A stretch of DNA of 37,055 nucleotides from positions 1 to 37,055 of the forward strand of contig CALPWQ020000014.1 in assembly GCA_943327315.2 (NCBI GenBank), written 5' to 3'. Positions 698 through 36,646 of the stretch are shown here, piece after piece (positions within the stretch are counted from its first letter, which is position 1; the number at the start of each line of letters is the position of its first letter). Made by a program: the position numbers and the translations under genes. Source of the stretch: Chitinophaga pinensis. Lineage in GTDB: Bacteria; Bacteroidota; Bacteroidia; Flavobacteriales_D; Crocinitomicaceae. The notes under the pieces were generated by a model. That model saw only the letters and a list, made by a program, of their open reading frames with translations. It did no database searches and was not told the DNA's origin.

Positions 698-1138
698 ATG
701 GGAAAACATCTACTTACGATTTCATTTGTGCTGATTCTTTGCGTGTTAGGCGCATCAGCTCAACCTCAAAACAACACTCAAAACAACACTTGGAACTATA
801 CGACACTGGATTCGAAAGGATTAGAAGAGCGGATTGTGTTGAACATCCACGCAGGAAATCCAAGGTACCAAGATGTGTTTTTGGCCTTGACATTTACTGT
901 TGAGGACTTTGGCAAGTTGAAAAGATCGTTCAATTCTTTGGGTGAGGATTTAAATGCCGCGATTTCAATTACGGAAATTTTTTTTGATGGCAATCATTCA
1001 GTCTTAACGGTTGTGTTTCCAAGAGAAATGTCAGATTCCGATGGCTTCTTAAAAACATGCAAAGACATCATGGCAAAATACGAAGTGTATCTTGTCGGTT
1101 ATGAAGAAGCATATTTACTTTCTACTACTTCAAAATGA
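698..1138 (+). CDS. Small secreted hypothetical protein
   Basis: The family is not recognised. The ATG at 698 gives 146 residues that begin with a clear signal peptide (MGKHLLTISFVLILCVLGASAQ). The open frame extends upstream to a GTG at 671, but that would bury the signal peptide behind nine extra residues. After the signal peptide come an Asn/Gln-rich stretch and a mixed alpha/beta region of about 115 residues with one cysteine and no further hydrophobic span, so the product is probably periplasmic or exported. The last codons overlap the next gene by four bases (ATGA at 1135-1138), so translation is probably coupled. Its place in front of a T9SS cargo gene suggests an accessory role, but nothing in the protein proves it. 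Confidence 0.75.
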   Translation: MGKHLLTISFVLILCVLGASAQPQNNTQNNTWNYTTLDSKGLEERIVLNIHAGNPRYQDVFLALTFTVEDFGKLKRSFNSLGEDLNAAISITEIFFDGNHSVLTVVFPREMSDSDGFLKTCKDIMAKYEVYLVGYEEAYLLSTTSK

Positions 1139-4100
1139 AAGCATTAAACAAAAGAATTGGAGCTGCCATAACAAGTTCTGTTCAATCTATTTTGTTCATC
1201 TCGGCGGCCCTGATATCAGTCAATGTCGCGTATGCGCAACCAGCCAATGACAATCCATGTAATGCGACACCGTTGACGGCAGGGACAGTATGCAATTATA
1301 CTGCAGGGACGAATGTGCTTGCTACAGATACACCCGGAGTTCCTGCTCCGGGATGTGCTGCTTATGTCGGACAAGACGTATGGTTTAGTGTGGTCGTTCC
1401 TGCTGGGGGCACTTTGAATTTTGATTCAAACACTGGTACCATGACGGATGGTGGGATGGCTATATATTCTGGATCTTGTTCGGCGTTGACCTTGTTAGCG
1501 TGTGATGATGACTCGAGTCCAAATGGGTTGATGTCATATATTTCATTGACCGGTCAAACCCCAGGTACAACCTTGTACATCCGTTTTTGGGATTATGCGG
1601 GTGGAACTGGAACGTTCTCGATATGTGCTGTGGCGCCACCGCCGCCACCGCCACCGCTTCCAATACCGTCGTGCGCGGGCAATCCTCCTGCAGGCAACGA
1701 CTGCGCGAGCGCAACAGCCATTTGTGAGTTGAACGGTTACTGTGGTAGCACAGCATCAACCTATACGGCGAATTATTGGCCGCAATTGAACAACGCGTTT
1801 TGTGGATCCATTGAAAACAACTCATTCATCTCTTTTGTGGCGTCATCAACAACTGTATCCTTCAATGTGTGGATCACGAGCTCAACCTTGGGCTATGGAA
1901 TTCAGATGTTCATCTTCTCAGCTACGGGTTGTGCGGGTGCAGTAACAAGTTATACTTGTTGGAATCCGGGCACAGCCACCGGCGGACCATCAACGGTATC
2001 TGCCTCGGGCTTAACCGTTGGAAACACCTATTACATCATGGTGGATGGAAATGCAGGCGACGTATGTAACTACATCATCGGTGCAAATACAGGTGTAAAT
2101 ACTCCGGTCAATCTAACACCTGTTACTTCATCCGTCTGTTCAGGTGGCTCTGTCAACCTTGCAGCTACTGGCGGTAACGGAACCTATACGTGGACACCAG
2201 CTGCAGGACTTTCTGCAACTTCTGGTGCCAATGTAACGGTTACTCCACCAACAACTCCTGGAACATATACGTATACCGTGAACTCTGCTACGGGAAATCC
2301 TTTGTGTCCATCAAGTACAACCGCTTCGGCTTCGATTACAGTTACAGGATCCGCAGCTATTAATGCTGGAGCGGATGTTGCGATTTGTACAGGGCAAAAT
2401 GTGACTTTAGCAGCTACTGGGGGTGCAACGTATACATGGTCACCTGCCATTACGAATGGTGTTCCATTTTCACCGCCGTCAACCACAACATATACCGTGT
2501 CTGGAACGACAGCTGCAGGCTGTGTTGGGACAGATCAAGTTACTGTGACGGTCAATCCAAGTCTATCTGTTTACGCAGGTCCAGATGTAACTGTATGTTC
2601 TGGACAAACGACGACATTAACAGGTTCAGGTATGACCACCTATTCATGGTCGCCTGTGGTCACCAATGGCGTCGCATTTGCGCCTTCCGTCAGCGGAACC
2701 TACACGGTAACTGGTACAAGTGCCGGCGGATGCACGAGCACCGATCAAGTGCTTGTTACGGTCAATAATACACCCACCGTTAATGGAGGTGTCGATGCAG
2801 CGGTATGCGCTGGTCAAACAGTAACACTCACTGCGGCCGGAGGAACTTCTTATTCATGGTCACCAGTGGTGACAAATGGGGTGTCATTTACTCCAGCTGC
2901 CACGGGAACATATACGGTAACGGGAACAGGTGCCAATGGCTGTACAAATACAGATCAGGTTTTAGTCACAGTAAACCCACTTCCAATTGTGAATGGGGGC
3001 GCAGATGTGGTAATATGTACGAGTCAAACGGTAACATTGACTGCTTCTGGTGCTTCAACATATTCTTGGTCTCCTGTTGTTACCAACGGCGTGGCATTTA
3101 CACCGGCTTCCTCAGGAACATATACCGTAACAGGAACCACAGCGAGTGGTTGTGTGAGCACCGATCAAGTGTTAGTCACCGTAAATACAGTGCCTACCAT
3201 CAATGGTGGCGCTGATGTAACGGTATGCTCGGGTCAAACAACAACATTGGCTGCCTCAGGGGCTACAACATACTCTTGGTCACCAGTGGTGACAAATGGC
3301 GTGGCCTTCTCCCCAGCTGCGACAGGTACATACACGGTAATTGGAACAACAGCAAGTGGCTGTACAAATACTGATCAAGTGCTTGTTACAGTAAATCCAT
3401 TGCCAACGGTGAATGGTGGAACGGATGTGACGATCTGTGAAGGTCAAAACGTAACGCTTACGGCCACTGGAGCGACAAGCTTCTCATGGTCTCCTACAGC
3501 AACAAATGGAGTGTCGTTTTCGCCATCAACTTCCTCAACATATACGGTGACAGGCACTTCTGCTTTGGGTTGTCAAAACACGGACATAGTTCAAGTAAAC
3601 GTCAATCCACTACCGAATGTCAATGCTGGTGCGGATCAGTCCGTTTGTGTTGGAACTCAAATAACCCTAACAGCAAACAATGCCGCAACATATTCTTGGT
3701 CACCTACAGTATCCAATGGTGTGGCATTTACACCACCAACCGGAACAACAACGTACACAGTAACCGGCACATCTGCTGCAGGCTGCCAAAATACGGATCA
3801 AGTTGTTGTTGCAGTAAATACAACTCCAGTTGTGAATGCAGGAACGTATCCTCCAGTTTGTAGCAACGTTTCGAACATTGCCTTGACAGGTTCGCCAATT
3901 GGTGGAACATTCGCAGGAACTGGAGTCTCAGGAACAAACTTTGCCACTTCGTCAGGGTCTCAAACACTCACATATAGCTACACAGATGCGAATGGATGTT
4001 TTGGTTCTGCAACGTCAAACATTACAGTGAATGCCTTGCCTACAGTGGCTGCTGGAACGGATGTTACCATTTGCGCAGGACAAACAATTACACTTGCCGC

Positions 4101-6477
4101 TACAGGTGCGACGACCTATTCATGGTCACCTGCTACAAATAACGGCGTAGCATTTAACCCAGCTAACACCGGAACTTATACAGTAACTGGTACGGATGTC
4201 AATGGTTGTGTGAACACAGACCAAGTGCTTGTGACGGTTAATTCTCTACCTACAGTGAATGCAGGTACAGATCAAACAGTGTGTATTGGTGTTCAAGTGA
4301 CTTTAAATGGAACTGGAGCAACAACGTACTCATGGTCACCAGCTGTTACCAATGGTACTCCTTTCGCTCCTCCTGTTGGGACTACAGTTTACACGGTGAC
4401 GGGCACATCGTCATCTGGTTGCGTTAGTACGGATGCAGTTCAAGTCGTATCGTCTTCGTCTCCAACCGTTAGTGCAGGAACCTATTCTCCTATATGTGTC
4501 AATGCGAGTCCTGTATCGCTTGCTGGTTCTCCGGTTGGAGGAACATTTACAGGAACTGGTGTTACGGGAACTACGTTTAATCCAGCTTCTGGAACACAAA
4601 CAATCACCTATGATTATATAGATCCAAACGGATGTTCTGGTTCTGCGACAGCTTCGATCACTGTGAATCCTCTTCCAACAATTGCTGGAGGCGCGGACGC
4701 GACAGTGTGTGCGGGTCAAACAACAACCTTAACTGCGTCAGGTGCTGTGACCTATTCATGGTCACCTGCAGCGACAAATGGTTTGGCATTCGCTCCACCA
4801 GCTACTGCAACATACACCGTCACAGGAACATCTGCTGCAGGATGTACAAGCACAGATCAAGTCGCAGTGACAGTCAATGCGCTTCCAGTAGTGAATGCAG
4901 GTCTGGATCAAGCGGTCTGTATTGGTGCGCAGGTCACATTAACAGCGACAGGTGCGGCGACCTATTCATGGTCACCACTAACCACAAATGGAACTCCTTT
5001 TACACCAACAGTTGGAACAACAGTCTATACAGCAACAGGAACGTCAGCAGCCGGTTGTGTGAGCACCGATGCTGTTCAAGTAACGTCTTATTCATCACCT
5101 CCCGTTAATGCAGGAACTTATACACCAGTGTGTATCGATGCCTCTCCAGTAACTTTGGCTGGAACACCGGCTGGAGGAACATTCACTGGAACAGGAGTAA
5201 CAGGAGCAGTATTCAATCCGGCTTCTGGAACACAAACAGTGACCTACAACTACACGGATCCCAATGGTTGTGCAGGTTCTGGAACGGCTACCATTACGGT
5301 GAATCCACTTCCTGTTGTGGATGCAGGTATATACAATCCGATTTGTGCCGATGCAGCGAACTTACCTCTAATAGGAACACCAGCAGGAGGAACATTCTCA
5401 GGAACAGGTGTTACAGCCAATGCCTTTGATCCTTCAGCAAATACGCAAACAGTAACCTATACCTACACGAATGCCAATGGTTGTGTCAACACAGATGTGG
5501 CGACCATCACGGTAGTTCAGTTGACGCCATCAAACGCAGGGACCTACACTCCAGTATGTATTGATGCCGCAAATGTGGTGTTGAACGGTACGCCGGCGGG
5601 AGGAACTTTCACAGGGACAGGTGTAACTGCAGGATCATTTGACCCAAGTGCTGGGACACAAACGGTGACATACACGTATTCGGACGCCATCGGATGTACA
5701 ACTTCGGCAACAGCAACAATCGTGGTGAATCCATTGCCTATTGTAGGTGCAGGAACTGCTCAAGTGATTTGTGAAGGGACTACAGTTACCCTGAACGGTA
5801 CAGGTGCAGCAACATATACATGGAGTGGCGGTGCCTTGAATGGTCAAGCATTTACTCCTTCCGTTGGCCAAAACATCTTCACGGTTACAGGTACAGATGC
5901 GAACGGTTGTGTGGCAACATCGACAGTAAACATCAATGTACTTCCTTTCCCAATAGCACAGGTCACAAGTGATGTTCAAACTGGAAACCCAGTATTGGAT
6001 GTGAACTTTGCAAATGGTTCACAGTTCGGAACGACATACGATTGGGATTTTGGAAATGGGAATACCTATACATCAAGCCTAACAGATGCTACGACTCAGT
6101 CTTATGCTGACCCGGGAACGTATAGTGTGACCCTTACAGCGTCAAATGGACTTTGTTCGTCGGTTGATTCTTTGGAAATCATTGTATTGCCTTTTGGAGA
6201 CCCTGAAGTCATTGTGCCAAACGTATTCTCACCGAATGATGACAATACGAATGACATCTTCTTCGTAACGCATTTGTACACGAAAGAAATTTACATCGTC
6301 ATCTTAAACCGATGGGGGAATGTTGTATTCGAGACAACTGATCCAGATCCAAAATGGAATGGTACCGCCCCAAGTGGTCAGGAGGTAACGGATGGTGTTT
6401 ACTTCTATAAGTATGTGGCAACAGGCATCAATGGCACAGAAATCAGTGGACATGGTGACATCACAGTGGTGCGATAG
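1135..6477 (+). CDS. Giant modular T9SS type B cargo protein (gliding-motility-associated C-terminal domain)
   Basis: A 1780-residue exported protein. Residues 1-34 are a signal peptide (cleavage near AYA-Q). Two pre-peptidase-like beta domains follow (about 36-165 and 180-320), separated by a run of seven prolines near residue 168. One longer module comes next, then 17 tandem modules of about 71 residues (nucleotides about 2354-5950), each with two cysteines. Twelve carry a YSWSP-x-x-TNG core and five carry a GGTF-x-GTGV core, in the order AAAAAAA-B-AA-B-AA-BBB-A. A PKD domain with YDWDFGNG follows near residue 1620. The last 90 residues (FSPNDDNTND..., LNRWGNVVFE, WNGT, DGVYFYKY) are the gliding-motility-associated sorting domain, which directs secretion through the type IX system. 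The modules look Ig-like, so adhesion or a cell-surface stalk is likely. The partner would be the PorP/SprF protein at 8176. Confidence 0.9.
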   Translation: MKALNKRIGAAITSSVQSILFISAALISVNVAYAQPANDNPCNATPLTAGTVCNYTAGTNVLATDTPGVPAPGCAAYVGQDVWFSVVVPAGGTLNFDSNTGTMTDGGMAIYSGSCSALTLLACDDDSSPNGLMSYISLTGQTPGTTLYIRFWDYAGGTGTFSICAVAPPPPPPPLPIPSCAGNPPAGNDCASATAICELNGYCGSTASTYTANYWPQLNNAFCGSIENNSFISFVASSTTVSFNVWITSSTLGYGIQMFIFSATGCAGAVTSYTCWNPGTATGGPSTVSASGLTVGNTYYIMVDGNAGDVCNYIIGANTGVNTPVNLTPVTSSVCSGGSVNLAATGGNGTYTWTPAAGLSATSGANVTVTPPTTPGTYTYTVNSATGNPLCPSSTTASASITVTGSAAINAGADVAICTGQNVTLAATGGATYTWSPAITNGVPFSPPSTTTYTVSGTTAAGCVGTDQVTVTVNPSLSVYAGPDVTVCSGQTTTLTGSGMTTYSWSPVVTNGVAFAPSVSGTYTVTGTSAGGCTSTDQVLVTVNNTPTVNGGVDAAVCAGQTVTLTAAGGTSYSWSPVVTNGVSFTPAATGTYTVTGTGANGCTNTDQVLVTVNPLPIVNGGADVVICTSQTVTLTASGASTYSWSPVVTNGVAFTPASSGTYTVTGTTASGCVSTDQVLVTVNTVPTINGGADVTVCSGQTTTLAASGATTYSWSPVVTNGVAFSPAATGTYTVIGTTASGCTNTDQVLVTVNPLPTVNGGTDVTICEGQNVTLTATGATSFSWSPTATNGVSFSPSTSSTYTVTGTSALGCQNTDIVQVNVNPLPNVNAGADQSVCVGTQITLTANNAATYSWSPTVSNGVAFTPPTGTTTYTVTGTSAAGCQNTDQVVVAVNTTPVVNAGTYPPVCSNVSNIALTGSPIGGTFAGTGVSGTNFATSSGSQTLTYSYTDANGCFGSATSNITVNALPTVAAGTDVTICAGQTITLAATGATTYSWSPATNNGVAFNPANTGTYTVTGTDVNGCVNTDQVLVTVNSLPTVNAGTDQTVCIGVQVTLNGTGATTYSWSPAVTNGTPFAPPVGTTVYTVTGTSSSGCVSTDAVQVVSSSSPTVSAGTYSPICVNASPVSLAGSPVGGTFTGTGVTGTTFNPASGTQTITYDYIDPNGCSGSATASITVNPLPTIAGGADATVCAGQTTTLTASGAVTYSWSPAATNGLAFAPPATATYTVTGTSAAGCTSTDQVAVTVNALPVVNAGLDQAVCIGAQVTLTATGAATYSWSPLTTNGTPFTPTVGTTVYTATGTSAAGCVSTDAVQVTSYSSPPVNAGTYTPVCIDASPVTLAGTPAGGTFTGTGVTGAVFNPASGTQTVTYNYTDPNGCAGSGTATITVNPLPVVDAGIYNPICADAANLPLIGTPAGGTFSGTGVTANAFDPSANTQTVTYTYTNANGCVNTDVATITVVQLTPSNAGTYTPVCIDAANVVLNGTPAGGTFTGTGVTAGSFDPSAGTQTVTYTYSDAIGCTTSATATIVVNPLPIVGAGTAQVICEGTTVTLNGTGAATYTWSGGALNGQAFTPSVGQNIFTVTGTDANGCVATSTVNINVLPFPIAQVTSDVQTGNPVLDVNFANGSQFGTTYDWDFGNGNTYTSSLTDATTQSYADPGTYSVTLTASNGLCSSVDSLEIIVLPFGDPEVIVPNVFSPNDDNTNDIFFVTHLYTKEIYIVILNRWGNVVFETTDPDPKWNGTAPSGQEVTDGVYFYKYVATGINGTEISGHGDITVVR
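2354..5950 (+). repeat. In-frame tandem coding repeat, 17 units of about 213 bp
   Basis: This is the DNA underlying the module array of the giant cargo protein. Unit length is about 71 codons. The most alike neighbours at the protein level are units 2 to 5, with shared segments such as VVTNGV and STDQVLVTVN. The array is a likely site of recombination and length change between strains, and short-read assemblies could collapse it. Confidence 0.85.
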
Positions 6478-26761: not shown

Positions 26762-27133
26762 ATGAAACTTGATAAAATTTTCCTAAAGAGTAATTCACGA
26801 TTCTCACAAGAGCTAACTGCATGGGCGGCAGAGCGAAATCTTCTTGTGGATGAATTCTCCGAGAAGGGCGAAGATGCCTTAGATGGAATTGATGGTTTGG
26901 TAATCTTTAGTGAAAATCAAACTGAGGACAAGGACCTTCTTGACATGAGAGAGAAATTTGATGGTCAACAGAAACCAGTTCACAAAATTGACATCAATGG
27001 AACCTTGATGGTGGGGGTGTCAAACCTCGACCTCTGGATTGAACGAAACCGTTGTAAAAAAGTCCTTTTTGTTGGTAGCGATTCTCTTGTGAGTAACACA
27101 AACTTAGAAAGATACCTGCTTAGTTTGAAGTAA
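26762..27133 (+). CDS. Hypothetical cytoplasmic protein
   Basis: The family is not recognised. The ATG at 26762 gives 123 residues (the frame is open to a TTG at 26720, but a good -7 box covers that point). There is no signal peptide or membrane span. The sequence alternates strands and helices (DGLVIFSEN, KKVLFVGSDSLVSN) and is acidic in the middle (EKGEDALDGIDG, QTEDKDLLDMREKFDG). This resembles a small Rossmann-like or receiver-like fold, but no phosphorylation motif is complete. Ten bases after its stop the heptamer repeat array begins (27143). It stands alone between the decarboxylase and the repeat-filled gap. Confidence 0.75.
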   Translation: MKLDKIFLKSNSRFSQELTAWAAERNLLVDEFSEKGEDALDGIDGLVIFSENQTEDKDLLDMREKFDGQQKPVHKIDINGTLMVGVSNLDLWIERNRCKKVLFVGSDSLVSNTNLERYLLSLK

Positions 27134-27142
27134 GCTTTCCTT

Positions 27143-27191
27143 AGTTACTAATTACTAGTTACTAATTACTAATTACGAGTTTCTAGTTACG
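27143..27191 (+). repeat. Heptamer tandem repeat array A
   Basis: Seven units of seven bases with the form A(A/G)TTAC(T/G), degenerate in the sixth unit, reading in the same direction as the gene that ends 10 bases upstream. ACTAA and ACTAG junctions place stop codons in several frames. It is the first part of composite repeat copy 1. Confidence 0.85.
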
Positions 27192-27364
27192 GATTTGGGA
27201 GCTCCGTCGCAGCGGACACGTGAGGTTCTCGAAGCCACGAATTGCGAATATGGTGATTAAACAACCAGCCTTCGAAGAATGATCAAGTCTTGTCATCTTA
27301 AAATCTTAATATCTTGAAGTCCATTTGTCTTATAGTGCAGCGGGTCTTTTGTCCTTTTGTCTTG
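27143..27364 (+). repeat. Composite intergenic repeat, copy 1
   Basis: After the heptamer array come a GC-richer stretch (GGTTCTCGAAGCCAC at about 27214-27228), a CTTCGAAG segment near 27270, and a block at 27296-27325 that is identical over 30 bases to the reverse complement of 36491-36520. A pyrimidine-rich tail follows (TCTTTTGTCCTTTTGTCTTGG). The tail may supply the -33 box (TTG, 27362-27364) for the downstream DUF6089 gene, with TAACTTTC at 27386-27393 as its -7 box. Together with copy 2 it forms a dispersed family. No ORF of interest is inside. Confidence 0.8.
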
Positions 27365-27405
27365 GACTAAATGAAATTTTCTCTGTAACTTTCCGTTTCG
27401 ACAAA

Positions 27406-28241: not shown

Positions 28242-28304
28242 AGTTACGAGTTACGAGTTACGAGTTACGAATTACGAATTACGAGTTACGAATTACGAAT
28301 TACT
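28242..28304 (+). repeat. Heptamer tandem repeat array B
   Basis: Nine units A(A/G)TTAC(G/T) in unbroken tandem, starting nine bases after the DUF6089 stop and reading in the same direction as that gene. The opposite-strand array at 28341-28403 faces it, so the two arms can pair. Confidence 0.9.
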
Positions 28305-28340
28305 TTCATTAATAACTACAGTCATTTGCAACTACAAATA

Positions 28341-28403
28341 GTAACTAGTAACTAGTCATTAGTAACTACAAATAATAACTAGCCATTGGTAATTCGTAAT
28401 TAT
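28341..28403 (-). repeat. Heptamer repeat array B-prime, opposite orientation
   Basis: On the minus strand, units of the type AGTTACT / AATTACG, more degenerate than array B, start directly after the stop of the peptidyl-prolyl isomerase gene (28404). The orientation again follows the upstream gene. With array B it forms a long imperfect inverted repeat between two convergent genes. Confidence 0.75.
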
Positions 28404-36320: not shown

Positions 36321-36328
36321 CAAATATA
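36321..36328 (-). promoter_or_regulatory. Candidate -7 box of the polyprenyl synthase operon
   Basis: Minus-strand TATATTTG is a perfect TAnnTTTG that ends five bases before the ATG at 36315. A promoter used here would give a leaderless or nearly leaderless transcript. Confidence 0.5.
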
Positions 36329-36329
36329 C

Positions 36330-36646
36330 TGAAAAGACAAGAGACCTGAAGATTTCAAGATATTAAGATTTCAAGATATTAAGACAAGAGCTTGGGCTGA
36401 GGTCCTCGAAGCCACAAAGGACCTTAAGACGTCAAGATATTAAGATTTCAAGACAAGGGACACTTCTACGCTCGATGAGCTTCGAAGGGCAATGGACTTC
36501 AAGATATTAAGATTTTAAGACGAGAAGACTTAATCAATCTTCGAAGTGTTCAGTTTTAAACTCGTAACTAGTAACTCGTAATTAGTAATTAGTAACTCGT
36601 AATTAGTAACTCGTCATTCGTAACTCGTCATTCGTAACTCGTCACT
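36330..36646 (-). repeat. Composite intergenic repeat, copy 2
   Basis: This fills the gap of about 325 bases between rlmN and the polyprenyl synthase. Read on the minus strand from the rlmN stop, it has heptamer array C, a CTTCGAAG segment, a block identical over 30 bases to 27296-27325 (36520-36491), and further copies of the 14-mer TCTTAATATCTTGA. The four 14-mer copies lie at 36499-36512, 36432-36445, 36371-36384 and 36355-36368. A GGCTTCGAGGACCTC segment (near 36400) and a tail of CTTGTC motifs complete it. Order and orientation relative to the upstream gene match copy 1. No gene is seen in it. Confidence 0.85.
36563..36646 (-). repeat. Heptamer tandem repeat array C
   Basis: Twelve units of seven bases. 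On the minus strand they read A(A/G)TTAC(G/T) with AATGACG variants, and the first unit overlaps the rlmN stop codon (36644-36642). The orientation is that of the upstream gene, as with the other arrays. Confidence 0.9.

What the first reader, a model, noticed from the sequence alone, without database searches (positions are those of the whole stretch)
27143..27364. Two copies of a composite dispersed repeat with conserved internal order
Copy 1 (27143-27364) and copy 2 (36330-36646, minus) share the order heptamer array, CTTCGAAG segment, 30-bp block, pyrimidine-rich tail with TTGTCTT. The block 27296-27325 is identical to the reverse complement of 36491-36520, and similarity extends to the CTTCGAAG on the upstream side. 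Copy 2 carries extra copies of the 14-mer TCTTAATATCTTGA. This looks like a non-coding mobile or gene-conversion unit (MITE-like or REP-like) specific to this lineage. I know of no named family that matches.
Basis: partly seen in the sequence, partly recalled or inferred. Interest (0 to 1): 0.65.

Follow-up and report, generated by a model that had tools for sequence, protein, structure and literature searches.

The report
Heptamer repeats anchored at stop codons
The two copies are samples of a genome-wide patchwork of tiny DNA repeats that fills the space just behind genes in one group of Flavobacteriales-like bacteria; the kind is known, but its fixed order, its direction and its fast turnover are striking.

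Summary
In detail: the 30-bp block is identical, the heptamer arrays match at 96% and the order is shared. But the copies are not a two-copy unit. Copy 1 hits 69 places in its own genome. A grammar recurs in this genome and three close relatives: stop codon, heptamers (RTKACKA)n, REP-like hairpin, TTCGAAGAATGAT segment, pyrimidine-rich 8-/7-mers. Apart from the short, unspecific M3 motif, none of the modules occurs in 362 kb of stretches from seven other same-genus genomes. [quoted passage not shown] Positions are conserved between relatives but content is replaced: 42% identity against 87% in other gaps. I saw no terminal inverted repeats, target duplication or clean empty site, so MITE is not supported. 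The hairpin is REP-like but lacks the usual tag, and is not near a Y1 transposase gene in 11 other genomes. The same heptamer array occurs sporadically in other phyla. Published heptamer repeats of Xanthomonas and Beggiatoaceae are the closest kind. Best reading: an STRR-type mosaic evolving by slippage and exchange; function unproven.

The parts
27142..27190 (+). M1 heptamer array (RTKACKA)n of copy 1; starts 8 nt after the stop codon of the upstream ORF (TAA at 27131-27133), on its coding strand
   Evidence: TRF; sequence
27197..27238 (+). M2 REP-like hairpin, long and decayed form (GGGAGCT..CTCGAAGCCAC); with flanking heptamer-like bases it is the stretch missing at the orthologous site in G010
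   Evidence: read; alignment
27270..27289 (+).
27293..27325 (+). M4 octamer stretch (RTCTTRAN) holding the 30-bp block 27296-27325
27322..27364 (+). M3 pyrimidine-rich TTTTGTC-type tail interrupted by a CAGCGG insert
   Evidence: sequence
27370..27400 (+). boundary: conserved non-repeat DNA upstream of the DUF6089 gene, recognisable in outgroup genomes; the repeats stop short of it
28242..28303 (+). further M1 array just 3' of the DUF6089 gene (ORF end 28233)
28339..28368 (-). further M1 array 3' of the convergent cyclophilin/FKBP gene, on that gene's coding strand
36559..36646 (-). M1 array of copy 2, overlapping the stop codon of the rlmN-like gene
36528..36546 (-). SEG of copy 2
36491..36520 (-). 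30-bp M4 block of copy 2
36463..36488 (-). hairpin insert CCTTCGAAGCTCATCGAGCGTAGAAG (M3ins1-like); the 38-nt stretch folds at z -2.26
36395..36413 (+). M2 hairpin core in the orientation opposite to copy 2
36349..36384 (-). M4 octamer array of copy 2
   Evidence: TRF
36321..36328 (-). boundary: TATATTTG (-7-box-like; the promoter consensus is recalled). Of 12 outgroup genomes whose rlmN gap could be read, 9 have TATATTTG and 3 TATCTTTG

Best explanation
Each copy is one instance of a modular repeat mosaic that fills the space between a gene's stop codon and the next gene. Next to the stop codon lies a tandem heptamer array (RTKACKA)n, reading along the upstream gene's coding strand. REP-like hairpins are embedded in it. 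Then follow a TTCGAAGAATGAT segment and pyrimidine-rich octamers and heptamers with further hairpins, ending at the next gene's promoter or at the opposing gene's own array. Shown: copy number, prevailing order, position, orientation of the stop-abutting arrays, restriction of the amplification to a subclade within the genomes searched, conserved position with fast replacement of content, tandem duplication of array-plus-hairpin blocks. Inferred mechanism: the 7- and 8-bp units grow and shrink by polymerase slippage. Hairpin-bearing blocks are gained, lost and copied between sites by recombination or template switching at the many near-identical short units. Gap DNA behind stop codons tolerates this, whereas coding and promoter DNA does not. 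The coding-strand orientation is a further rule, either selected (stop codons, mRNA 3' end) or produced by transcription; the data do not decide which.
For: Dispersed: 69 own-genome hits with copy 1, 54 with the right part of copy 2. Array census: 118 M1 arrays of 3 or more units in 1.18 Mb of stretches from G000, G004, G010 and G015, and 0 in 362 kb from seven other same-genus genomes. Position: of 115 arrays outside called genes, 48 start within 20 nt of a sense stop against a null mean of 7.3 (maximum 17 in 2000 simulations); 0 end within 20 nt of an antisense stop; of 97 with both neighbours called, 3 lie in divergent gaps, which hold 42.0 of 214.6 kb of gap length. Order: M4 lies 3' of M1 in the same orientation in 24 of 33 motif pairs, SEG in 10 of 11, M3 in 78 of 140, M2 in 42 of 79 with 26 more 5' in the same orientation. 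Subclade: G004, G010 and G015 share 96-99% identity with G000 in the polyprenyl synthetase against 77-86% in the other 15; in a search of 18 same-genus genomes these three gave 33, 42 and 35 matches and the other 15 gave 0-4. Turnover: of 33 orthologous gaps, 7 have two or more M1 hits on both sides, 1 on one side, 25 on neither (p 2e-6); the 8 repeat gaps align at a median of 42% identity and 20 of the 25 others (those of at least 40 bp) at 87%, p 0.002, at similar identity of the flanking genes (87% and 85%). Convergent gaps have a median of 218 bp in the rich genomes (n 105) and 66 bp in the outgroups (n 28); co-directional 72 and 57.5, divergent 173 and 125. Tandem blocks: L031 and L036, read.
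Against: Slippage and exchange were not observed directly. The two clear hairpin indels (copy 1 in G000 against G010, and the L022 site) fit loss as well as gain. In co-directional gaps, sense arrays are only slightly more common than antisense (23 against 18), so the orientation rule is strict only for arrays that abut a stop. Outside this clade the strand is mixed. Slippage alone does not explain why the same heptamer family recurs in unrelated phyla while the reversed control pattern is absent from 395 genomes.
Confidence: 0.6

Rival explanations
1. Non-autonomous mobile element (MITE or REPIN) moved in trans by the genome's Y1 transposase, an IS200/IS605-type enzyme.
For: One Y1_Tnp gene in the genome has an M2 hairpin and M1 heptamers directly 3' of it; it lies beside the same neighbour gene in G010 and G015. 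M2 reads as an insert in RTT^ACGA units and, with other flanks, also in M3-type DNA.
Against: NCBIfam calls the protein IS200/IS605 (76.6 bits, cut-off 55) and not REP-associated (31.9 bits, cut-off 80). M1 follows many genes, so the neighbourhood is weak evidence; behind the orthologue G015 has M1 but no M2, and G010 has neither. In 11 other genomes with the M2 core, none of 35 Y1 matches lies within 13 kb of any of the 45 M2 hits, and G030 has 8 M2 hits and no Y1 match. No TIR, TSD or clean empty site seen.
Confidence: 0.12
2. Selected 3'-UTR element: arrays supply back-up stop codons, end transcription or stabilise mRNA 3' ends.
For: Coding-strand position right after the stop. Genes with M1 use TAG in 21 of 51 cases against 62 of 350 without M1 (p 1e-4 over the three stop codons) and have a terminator-like hairpin in 1 of 51 against 32 of 350 (p 0.10). 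Units that make TAR stops are commoner in the 5' half of arrays (40 arrays against 15, p 0.001). In other genomes of the phylum the M2 core can lie in terminator-like settings (L297, L298).
Against: Only 19 of the 48 stop-abutting arrays close all three sense frames and 10 close none. The stop-unit polarity is as strong in arrays that do not abut a stop (20 against 7). M1 itself has no RNA fold above shuffles (z +0.34). The terminator difference is not significant.
Confidence: 0.22
3. A single duplication made the two copies.
For: Exact 30-bp identity.
Against: 69 own-genome hits and matches to the same stretches in three close relatives.
Confidence: 0.01
4. Recurrent horizontal transfer of heptamer arrays between phyla, with local amplification.
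For: Patchy occurrence in records named Cyanobacteria, Bacteroidota groups, Ignavibacteria, Kapaibacterium, Chloroflexaceae and others; 8 of 395 phylum genomes, own included. The author of PMC4679880 argued this for TAACTGA repeats.
Against: No carrier was found (none was searched for beyond Y1 genes), and units within loci vary in ways that fit local slippage. Some foreign records are MAG contigs and could be misbinned.
Confidence: 0.1

Closest known systems
Heptameric GGGAATC-type intergenic repeats of Xanthomonas and GGGGA(T/C)T repeats of Nostoc (PMC4692102; passages and section 13 read)
   Same: 7-bp units, intergenic; [quoted passage not shown] length and sequence vary between close relatives
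   Different: Different unit, studied there as G-quadruplex-forming; the parts I read describe no embedded hairpins and no downstream grammar of further modules
TAACTGA heptamer repeats of Beggiatoaceae, Cyanobacteria and some Bacteroidetes (PMC4679880; abstract, passages and section 12 read)
   Same: Heptamer arrays that give stop codons in one direction, patchy across some of the same phyla, other heptamer repeats in the same gaps, relatives with shorter gaps lacking repeats
   Different: Unit differs (ours read TAAYTMG on the other strand); in the Beggiatoaceae genome most lie just upstream of start codons, here they lie behind stop codons and rarely in divergent gaps
STRR heptamers of heterocystous cyanobacteria (recalled; the term was seen in a listed abstract)
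   Same: Short tandem heptamers dispersed between genes
   Different: Unit and taxon; not compared base by base here. (RTTACKA)6 itself does occur in records named Nostoc, Anabaena and Planktothrix
REP / REPIN with RAYT (PMC3733652 abstract and outline; PMC3116915 passages)
   Same: M2 is a 24-60 bp intergenic palindrome, often downstream of genes, in tens of copies
   Different: No GTAG or CGTC tag seen at the foot, no Y1 gene near the M2 core in 11 other genomes, embedded in heptamer arrays
Cyanobacterial small dispersed repeats, Elhai et al. 2008 (recalled; the paper is not held; seen only as a citation in PMC3116915)
   Same: By recall, tiny hairpin elements nested in other repeats
   Different: Could not be compared

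Membership tests
MITE | terminal inverted repeats | tested here: not met
   Left end is heptamer GTTACTA.., right end is pyrimidine TTTTGTC; no complementarity between the ends seen by eye in either copy
MITE | target-site duplication and clean empty site | tested here: not met
   None seen by eye at the rlmN or DUF6089 site, where outgroup gaps are too different for a base-level empty site. Among 33 orthologous gaps, 7 of 8 repeat-bearing ones carry two or more M1 hits in both genomes; the eighth has 1 against 2 hits
MITE | shared ends with a full-length transposon | tested here: inconclusive
   One Y1 gene only, with M2/M1 on its 3' side but none seen on its 5' side; other transposase families were not searched
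REP/RAYT (module M2 only) | intergenic palindrome of 20-40 bp in many copies | tested here: met
   66 exact-core hits in the own genome, control 0; 0 of 41 within called genes; length 24 to about 60 bp with nested inserts
REP/RAYT (module M2 only) | GTAG or CGTC tag at the hairpin foot | tested here: not met
   Common feet read TTTGGTGGCT or TTAGGTGGCT, and TTCGTGGCT on the other strand (by eye)
REP/RAYT (module M2 only) | cognate RAYT flanked by the repeat | tested here: inconclusive
   M2 lies beside G000's own Y1 gene; not at the G010 and G015 orthologues; none of 35 Y1 matches within 13 kb of any of 45 M2 hits in 11 other genomes; in G004 neither the Y1 gene nor its neighbour gene was found, so its absence cannot be judged
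Heptameric intergenic repeats (STRR-like) | tandem 7-bp units, intergenic, many sites | tested here: met
   118 arrays, 3 inside called genes
Heptameric intergenic repeats (STRR-like) | close to stop codons on the coding strand (as in PMC4692102) | tested here: met
   48 of 115 start within 20 nt, 0 in the antisense direction
TAACTGA repeats | unit TAACTGA and location upstream of start codons | tested here: not met
   Unit is RTKACKA; 3 of 97 in divergent gaps; in co-directional sense cases the median distance is 28 nt to the stop and 288 nt to the next start (33 arrays of 2 or more units)
Known RNA families | Rfam gathering-score match | tested here: not met
   0 matches in the window

The most novel reading that the evidence does not exclude
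A transcription- or translation-linked process lays and renews heptamer arrays on the coding strand directly at stop codons (often in register with them, with an excess of TAG stops). The same process, with the same preferred heptamer, has arisen or persists in unrelated phyla, so that one unknown molecular mechanism underlies heptamer repeats in Bacteroidota, Cyanobacteria and others.
Probability: 0.13. Interest if true: 0.78.

Novelty: new variant of a known kind. Interest (0 to 1): 0.47.

Why it matters
Heptamer repeats in bacteria have been described in print, but the papers I read leave their origin and role open. Here one subclade has amplified them recently, with clean close outgroups, a position and direction rule, and content replaced while the sites stay. 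This makes three questions testable in natural strains: how the arrays arise, why they sit at stop codons on the coding strand, and why the same heptamer recurs in distant phyla. It also warns that non-coding gaps in such genomes evolve far faster than the genes beside them, and that several contigs in this assembly end in these repeats.

Tried and rejected
MITE reading: looked for inverted ends, target duplications and empty sites; none found. RAYT reading: the own Y1 gene looked promising, but orthologues, the NCBIfam score and 11 other genomes did not support it; the G004 check was uninformative because the neighbouring gene is missing too. Stop-codon insurance: partial and mixed support. 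Intrinsic terminator replacement: suggestive only. Rfam: nothing. RNA folding: M1, the SEG-M3 tail and three M2 sequences are not clearly better than shuffles (z +0.34, +1.12, and -0.33, -0.46, -1.49); only the M3ins1-type hairpin is (z -2.26, 6 of 200 shuffles at least as good). A general rule of sense orientation across phyla is rejected: in 80 foreign loci, of 81 arrays outside ORFs, 20 lie in sense and 30 in antisense within 40 nt of a stop (p 0.20); 5 count in both, so 45 lie near a stop and 10 near a start. Of the 30 antisense ones, 18 overlap the stop, which is partly forced, since in that direction every unit holds a TAA. A search of the papers for the motif letters returned 11,176 papers, and the 12 listed were unrelated. 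A search for Fluviicola with repeat terms returned none.

Limits: genes were called by my own scripts, so some small genes were missed and a few contexts may be wrong. M3's motif is short, occurs in genes and in outgroups, and is weak evidence alone. Pair counts count motif pairs, so one gap can count more than once; SEG has only 11 occurrences, 2 of them in called genes. Five of the 25 non-repeat gaps were dropped from the identity comparison because they are under 40 bp. The genome search scores only part of its candidates, so match counts are lower bounds. The genome is a 178-contig draft, and completeness of the 18 relatives runs from 64 to 99%.

Full report
Observation. Copy 1 and copy 2 exist as described. 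The 30-bp block is exact, the longer segment with CTTCGAAG is 93% identical over 56 bp and the heptamer arrays 96% over 49 bp, and the 14-mer counts are 1 and 4. The window holds two more heptamer arrays. All four arrays overlap a stop codon or start within 36 nt behind one, and read along that gene's coding strand.

Copy number and lineage. A search of the own genome with copy 1 gives 69 matches, and the right part of copy 2 gives 54. Among 18 same-genus genomes, G004, G010 and G015 gave 33, 42 and 35 matches and the other 15 gave 0-4. These three share 96-99% identity with the window's genome in the polyprenyl synthetase next to copy 2, whereas the others share 77-86%, so within the genomes searched the amplification belongs to one subclade. 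The nearest named record found was a Flavobacteriia MAG (Kiruna3_bin-5384), 95% identical over 3.4 kb; records named Flavobacteriales (81%) and Cryomorphaceae (77%) also carry some of the modules. That divergence is like G015's in some flanking genes (75-88%), so they may belong to the same subclade.

Anatomy. I read 41 stretches of G000 (the window included, 827 kb), 20 of G004/G010/G015 (353 kb) and 20 of seven outgroup genomes of the same genus (362 kb). Modules: M1, heptamers RTKACKA (mostly GTTACGA, ATTACGA, GTTACTA, ATTACTA, ATGACGA, ATGACTA). M2, hairpin GGTGGCTGAGGT..CTCGAAGCCAC with longer nested forms. SEG, TTCGAAGAATGAT. M4, octamers RTCTTRAN. M3, TTTTGTC-like heptamers. Hairpins CTTCGAAGCTC..GAGCGAAGAAG (M3ins1), CAGCGCAGCGG (M3ins2) and AATTGCCGAAGGCATCAAATT (M5). 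M1, M2, M4, M5, both M3 inserts and SEG were absent from the outgroup stretches; the short M3 motif was present there and inside genes.

Position and order. Of 118 arrays, 3 lie in called genes. Of the other 115, 48 start within 20 nt of a sense stop, against 7.3 expected from random placement in the same gaps, and none ends within 20 nt of an antisense stop. Of 97 with both neighbours called, 3 lie between divergent genes. In co-directional gaps the excess of sense over antisense is small (23 against 18). Relative to M1, M4 lies 3' in the same orientation in 24 of 33 motif pairs, SEG in 10 of 11, M3 in 78 of 140.

Turnover. At the rlmN-polyprenyl synthetase gap, the distance from the rlmN stop to the TATATTTG or TATCTTTG box is 40-102 nt in the 12 outgroup genomes where both could be read and 168-319 nt in the four rich genomes. 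In the rich genomes the gap is made of modules, different in each, between a conserved stop region and the conserved box. At copy 1, G010 shares the site and most of the sequence but lacks the stretch with M2. Over 33 orthologous gaps, two or more M1 hits are present on both sides in 7, on one in 1, on neither in 25. The 8 repeat gaps align at 42% median identity and 20 of the 25 others at 87%, with similar identity of flanking genes. Sites are therefore old and content is young. Convergent gaps have a median of 218 bp in the rich genomes and 66 bp in the outgroups; the other gap classes differ less.

Mechanism. Tandem blocks of M2 plus heptamers (L031, L036), indels bounded by heptamer-like bases, and conserved sites with replaced content fit slippage plus exchange between short repeats; this is inference. 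The transposition reading was tested. The genome has one Y1 gene of the IS200/IS605 type with M2 and M1 behind it. But its orthologues in G010 and G015 lack M2 there, and in 11 other genomes with the M2 core none of the 35 Y1 matches lies within 13 kb of any of the 45 M2 hits, one of these genomes having no Y1 match at all. For a function, the evidence is mixed. Genes with M1 favour TAG stops (21 of 51 against 62 of 350) and rarely have a terminator-like hairpin (1 of 51 against 32 of 350, not significant). Stop-making units lean to the 5' half of arrays (40 against 15), but as strongly in arrays away from stops (20 against 7). Array starts fall in register with a TAR stop in 15 of the 48 stop-abutting cases, against about 7 expected for any one of seven registers.

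Wider picture. The exact pattern (RTTACKA)6 occurs in at least 111 stretches of public genomes, among the 80 listed records named Nostoc, Anabaena, Planktothrix, Fluviicola, Saprospiraceae, Ignavibacteria, Kapaibacterium and Chloroflexaceae (many are MAG contigs). In those 80 loci, of 81 arrays outside ORFs 45 lie within 40 nt of a stop and 10 within 40 nt of a start, but the strand is mixed (20 sense, 30 antisense, 5 in both). In 395 genomes of the phylum, 8 (own included) have (RTTACKA)5 and none has the reversed control.

Comparison. The same location rule, within 0-50 bp of the stop on the coding strand and including overlap with the stop, is reported for GGGAATC repeats (PMC4692102, section 13). 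Patchy heptamers in Beggiatoaceae, Cyanobacteria and Bacteroidetes, with other heptamers in the same gaps and repeat-free relatives, are reported for TAACTGA (PMC4679880, abstract, passages and section 12). So the kind is known. What differs, against the parts I read, is the unit, the order of several modules, the nested hairpins and the measured turnover in a tight clade. Verdict: new variant of a known kind; not supported as a MITE; function open.

Noticed in passing
L068, L079 (G005, G007) and L072 (G002): In these outgroup genomes other Y1 transposase genes are flanked by several copies of palindromes of their own (GTCCCGTAGGGAC type; CAACCCTGAAGGGGTTG type), a likely RAYT-REP arrangement unrelated to M2.
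   Followed up: partly
27370-27400 and L104-L121: A conserved non-coding stretch (AATTTTCTCYGTAAYTTGGCGTT-like) is recognisable upstream of the DUF6089 gene in all 17 same-genus loci whose upstream stretch was printed, repeat-rich or not (weakest in G009): a possible promoter or 5'-UTR element.
   Followed up: no
L297, L298: In two other genomes of the phylum the M2 core lies inside a longer palindrome or between A and T runs, close to the stop of an opposing gene, as in a bidirectional terminator.
   Followed up: no
sampled G000/G004/G010/G015 stretches: Genes with an adjacent heptamer array use TAG stops 21 of 51 times, other genes 62 of 350.
   Followed up: partly
L032, L022, L035, L223: Mini-hairpins AATT-GCC GAA GGC-ATCAAATT vary on both sides of the stem (CCC/GGG, GCC/GGC, TGC/GCA), as if renewed with pairing kept; read by eye.
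   Followed up: no
2857-3448: A 210-bp tandem repeat (2.8 copies) lies inside the 1780-aa CHU_C/type IX-secreted protein gene 1135-6477.
   Followed up: no
several G000 contig ends (L023, L034, L036, L038, L133): Several contigs end inside or close to these repeats, so copy numbers from draft genomes are likely too low.
   Followed up: no
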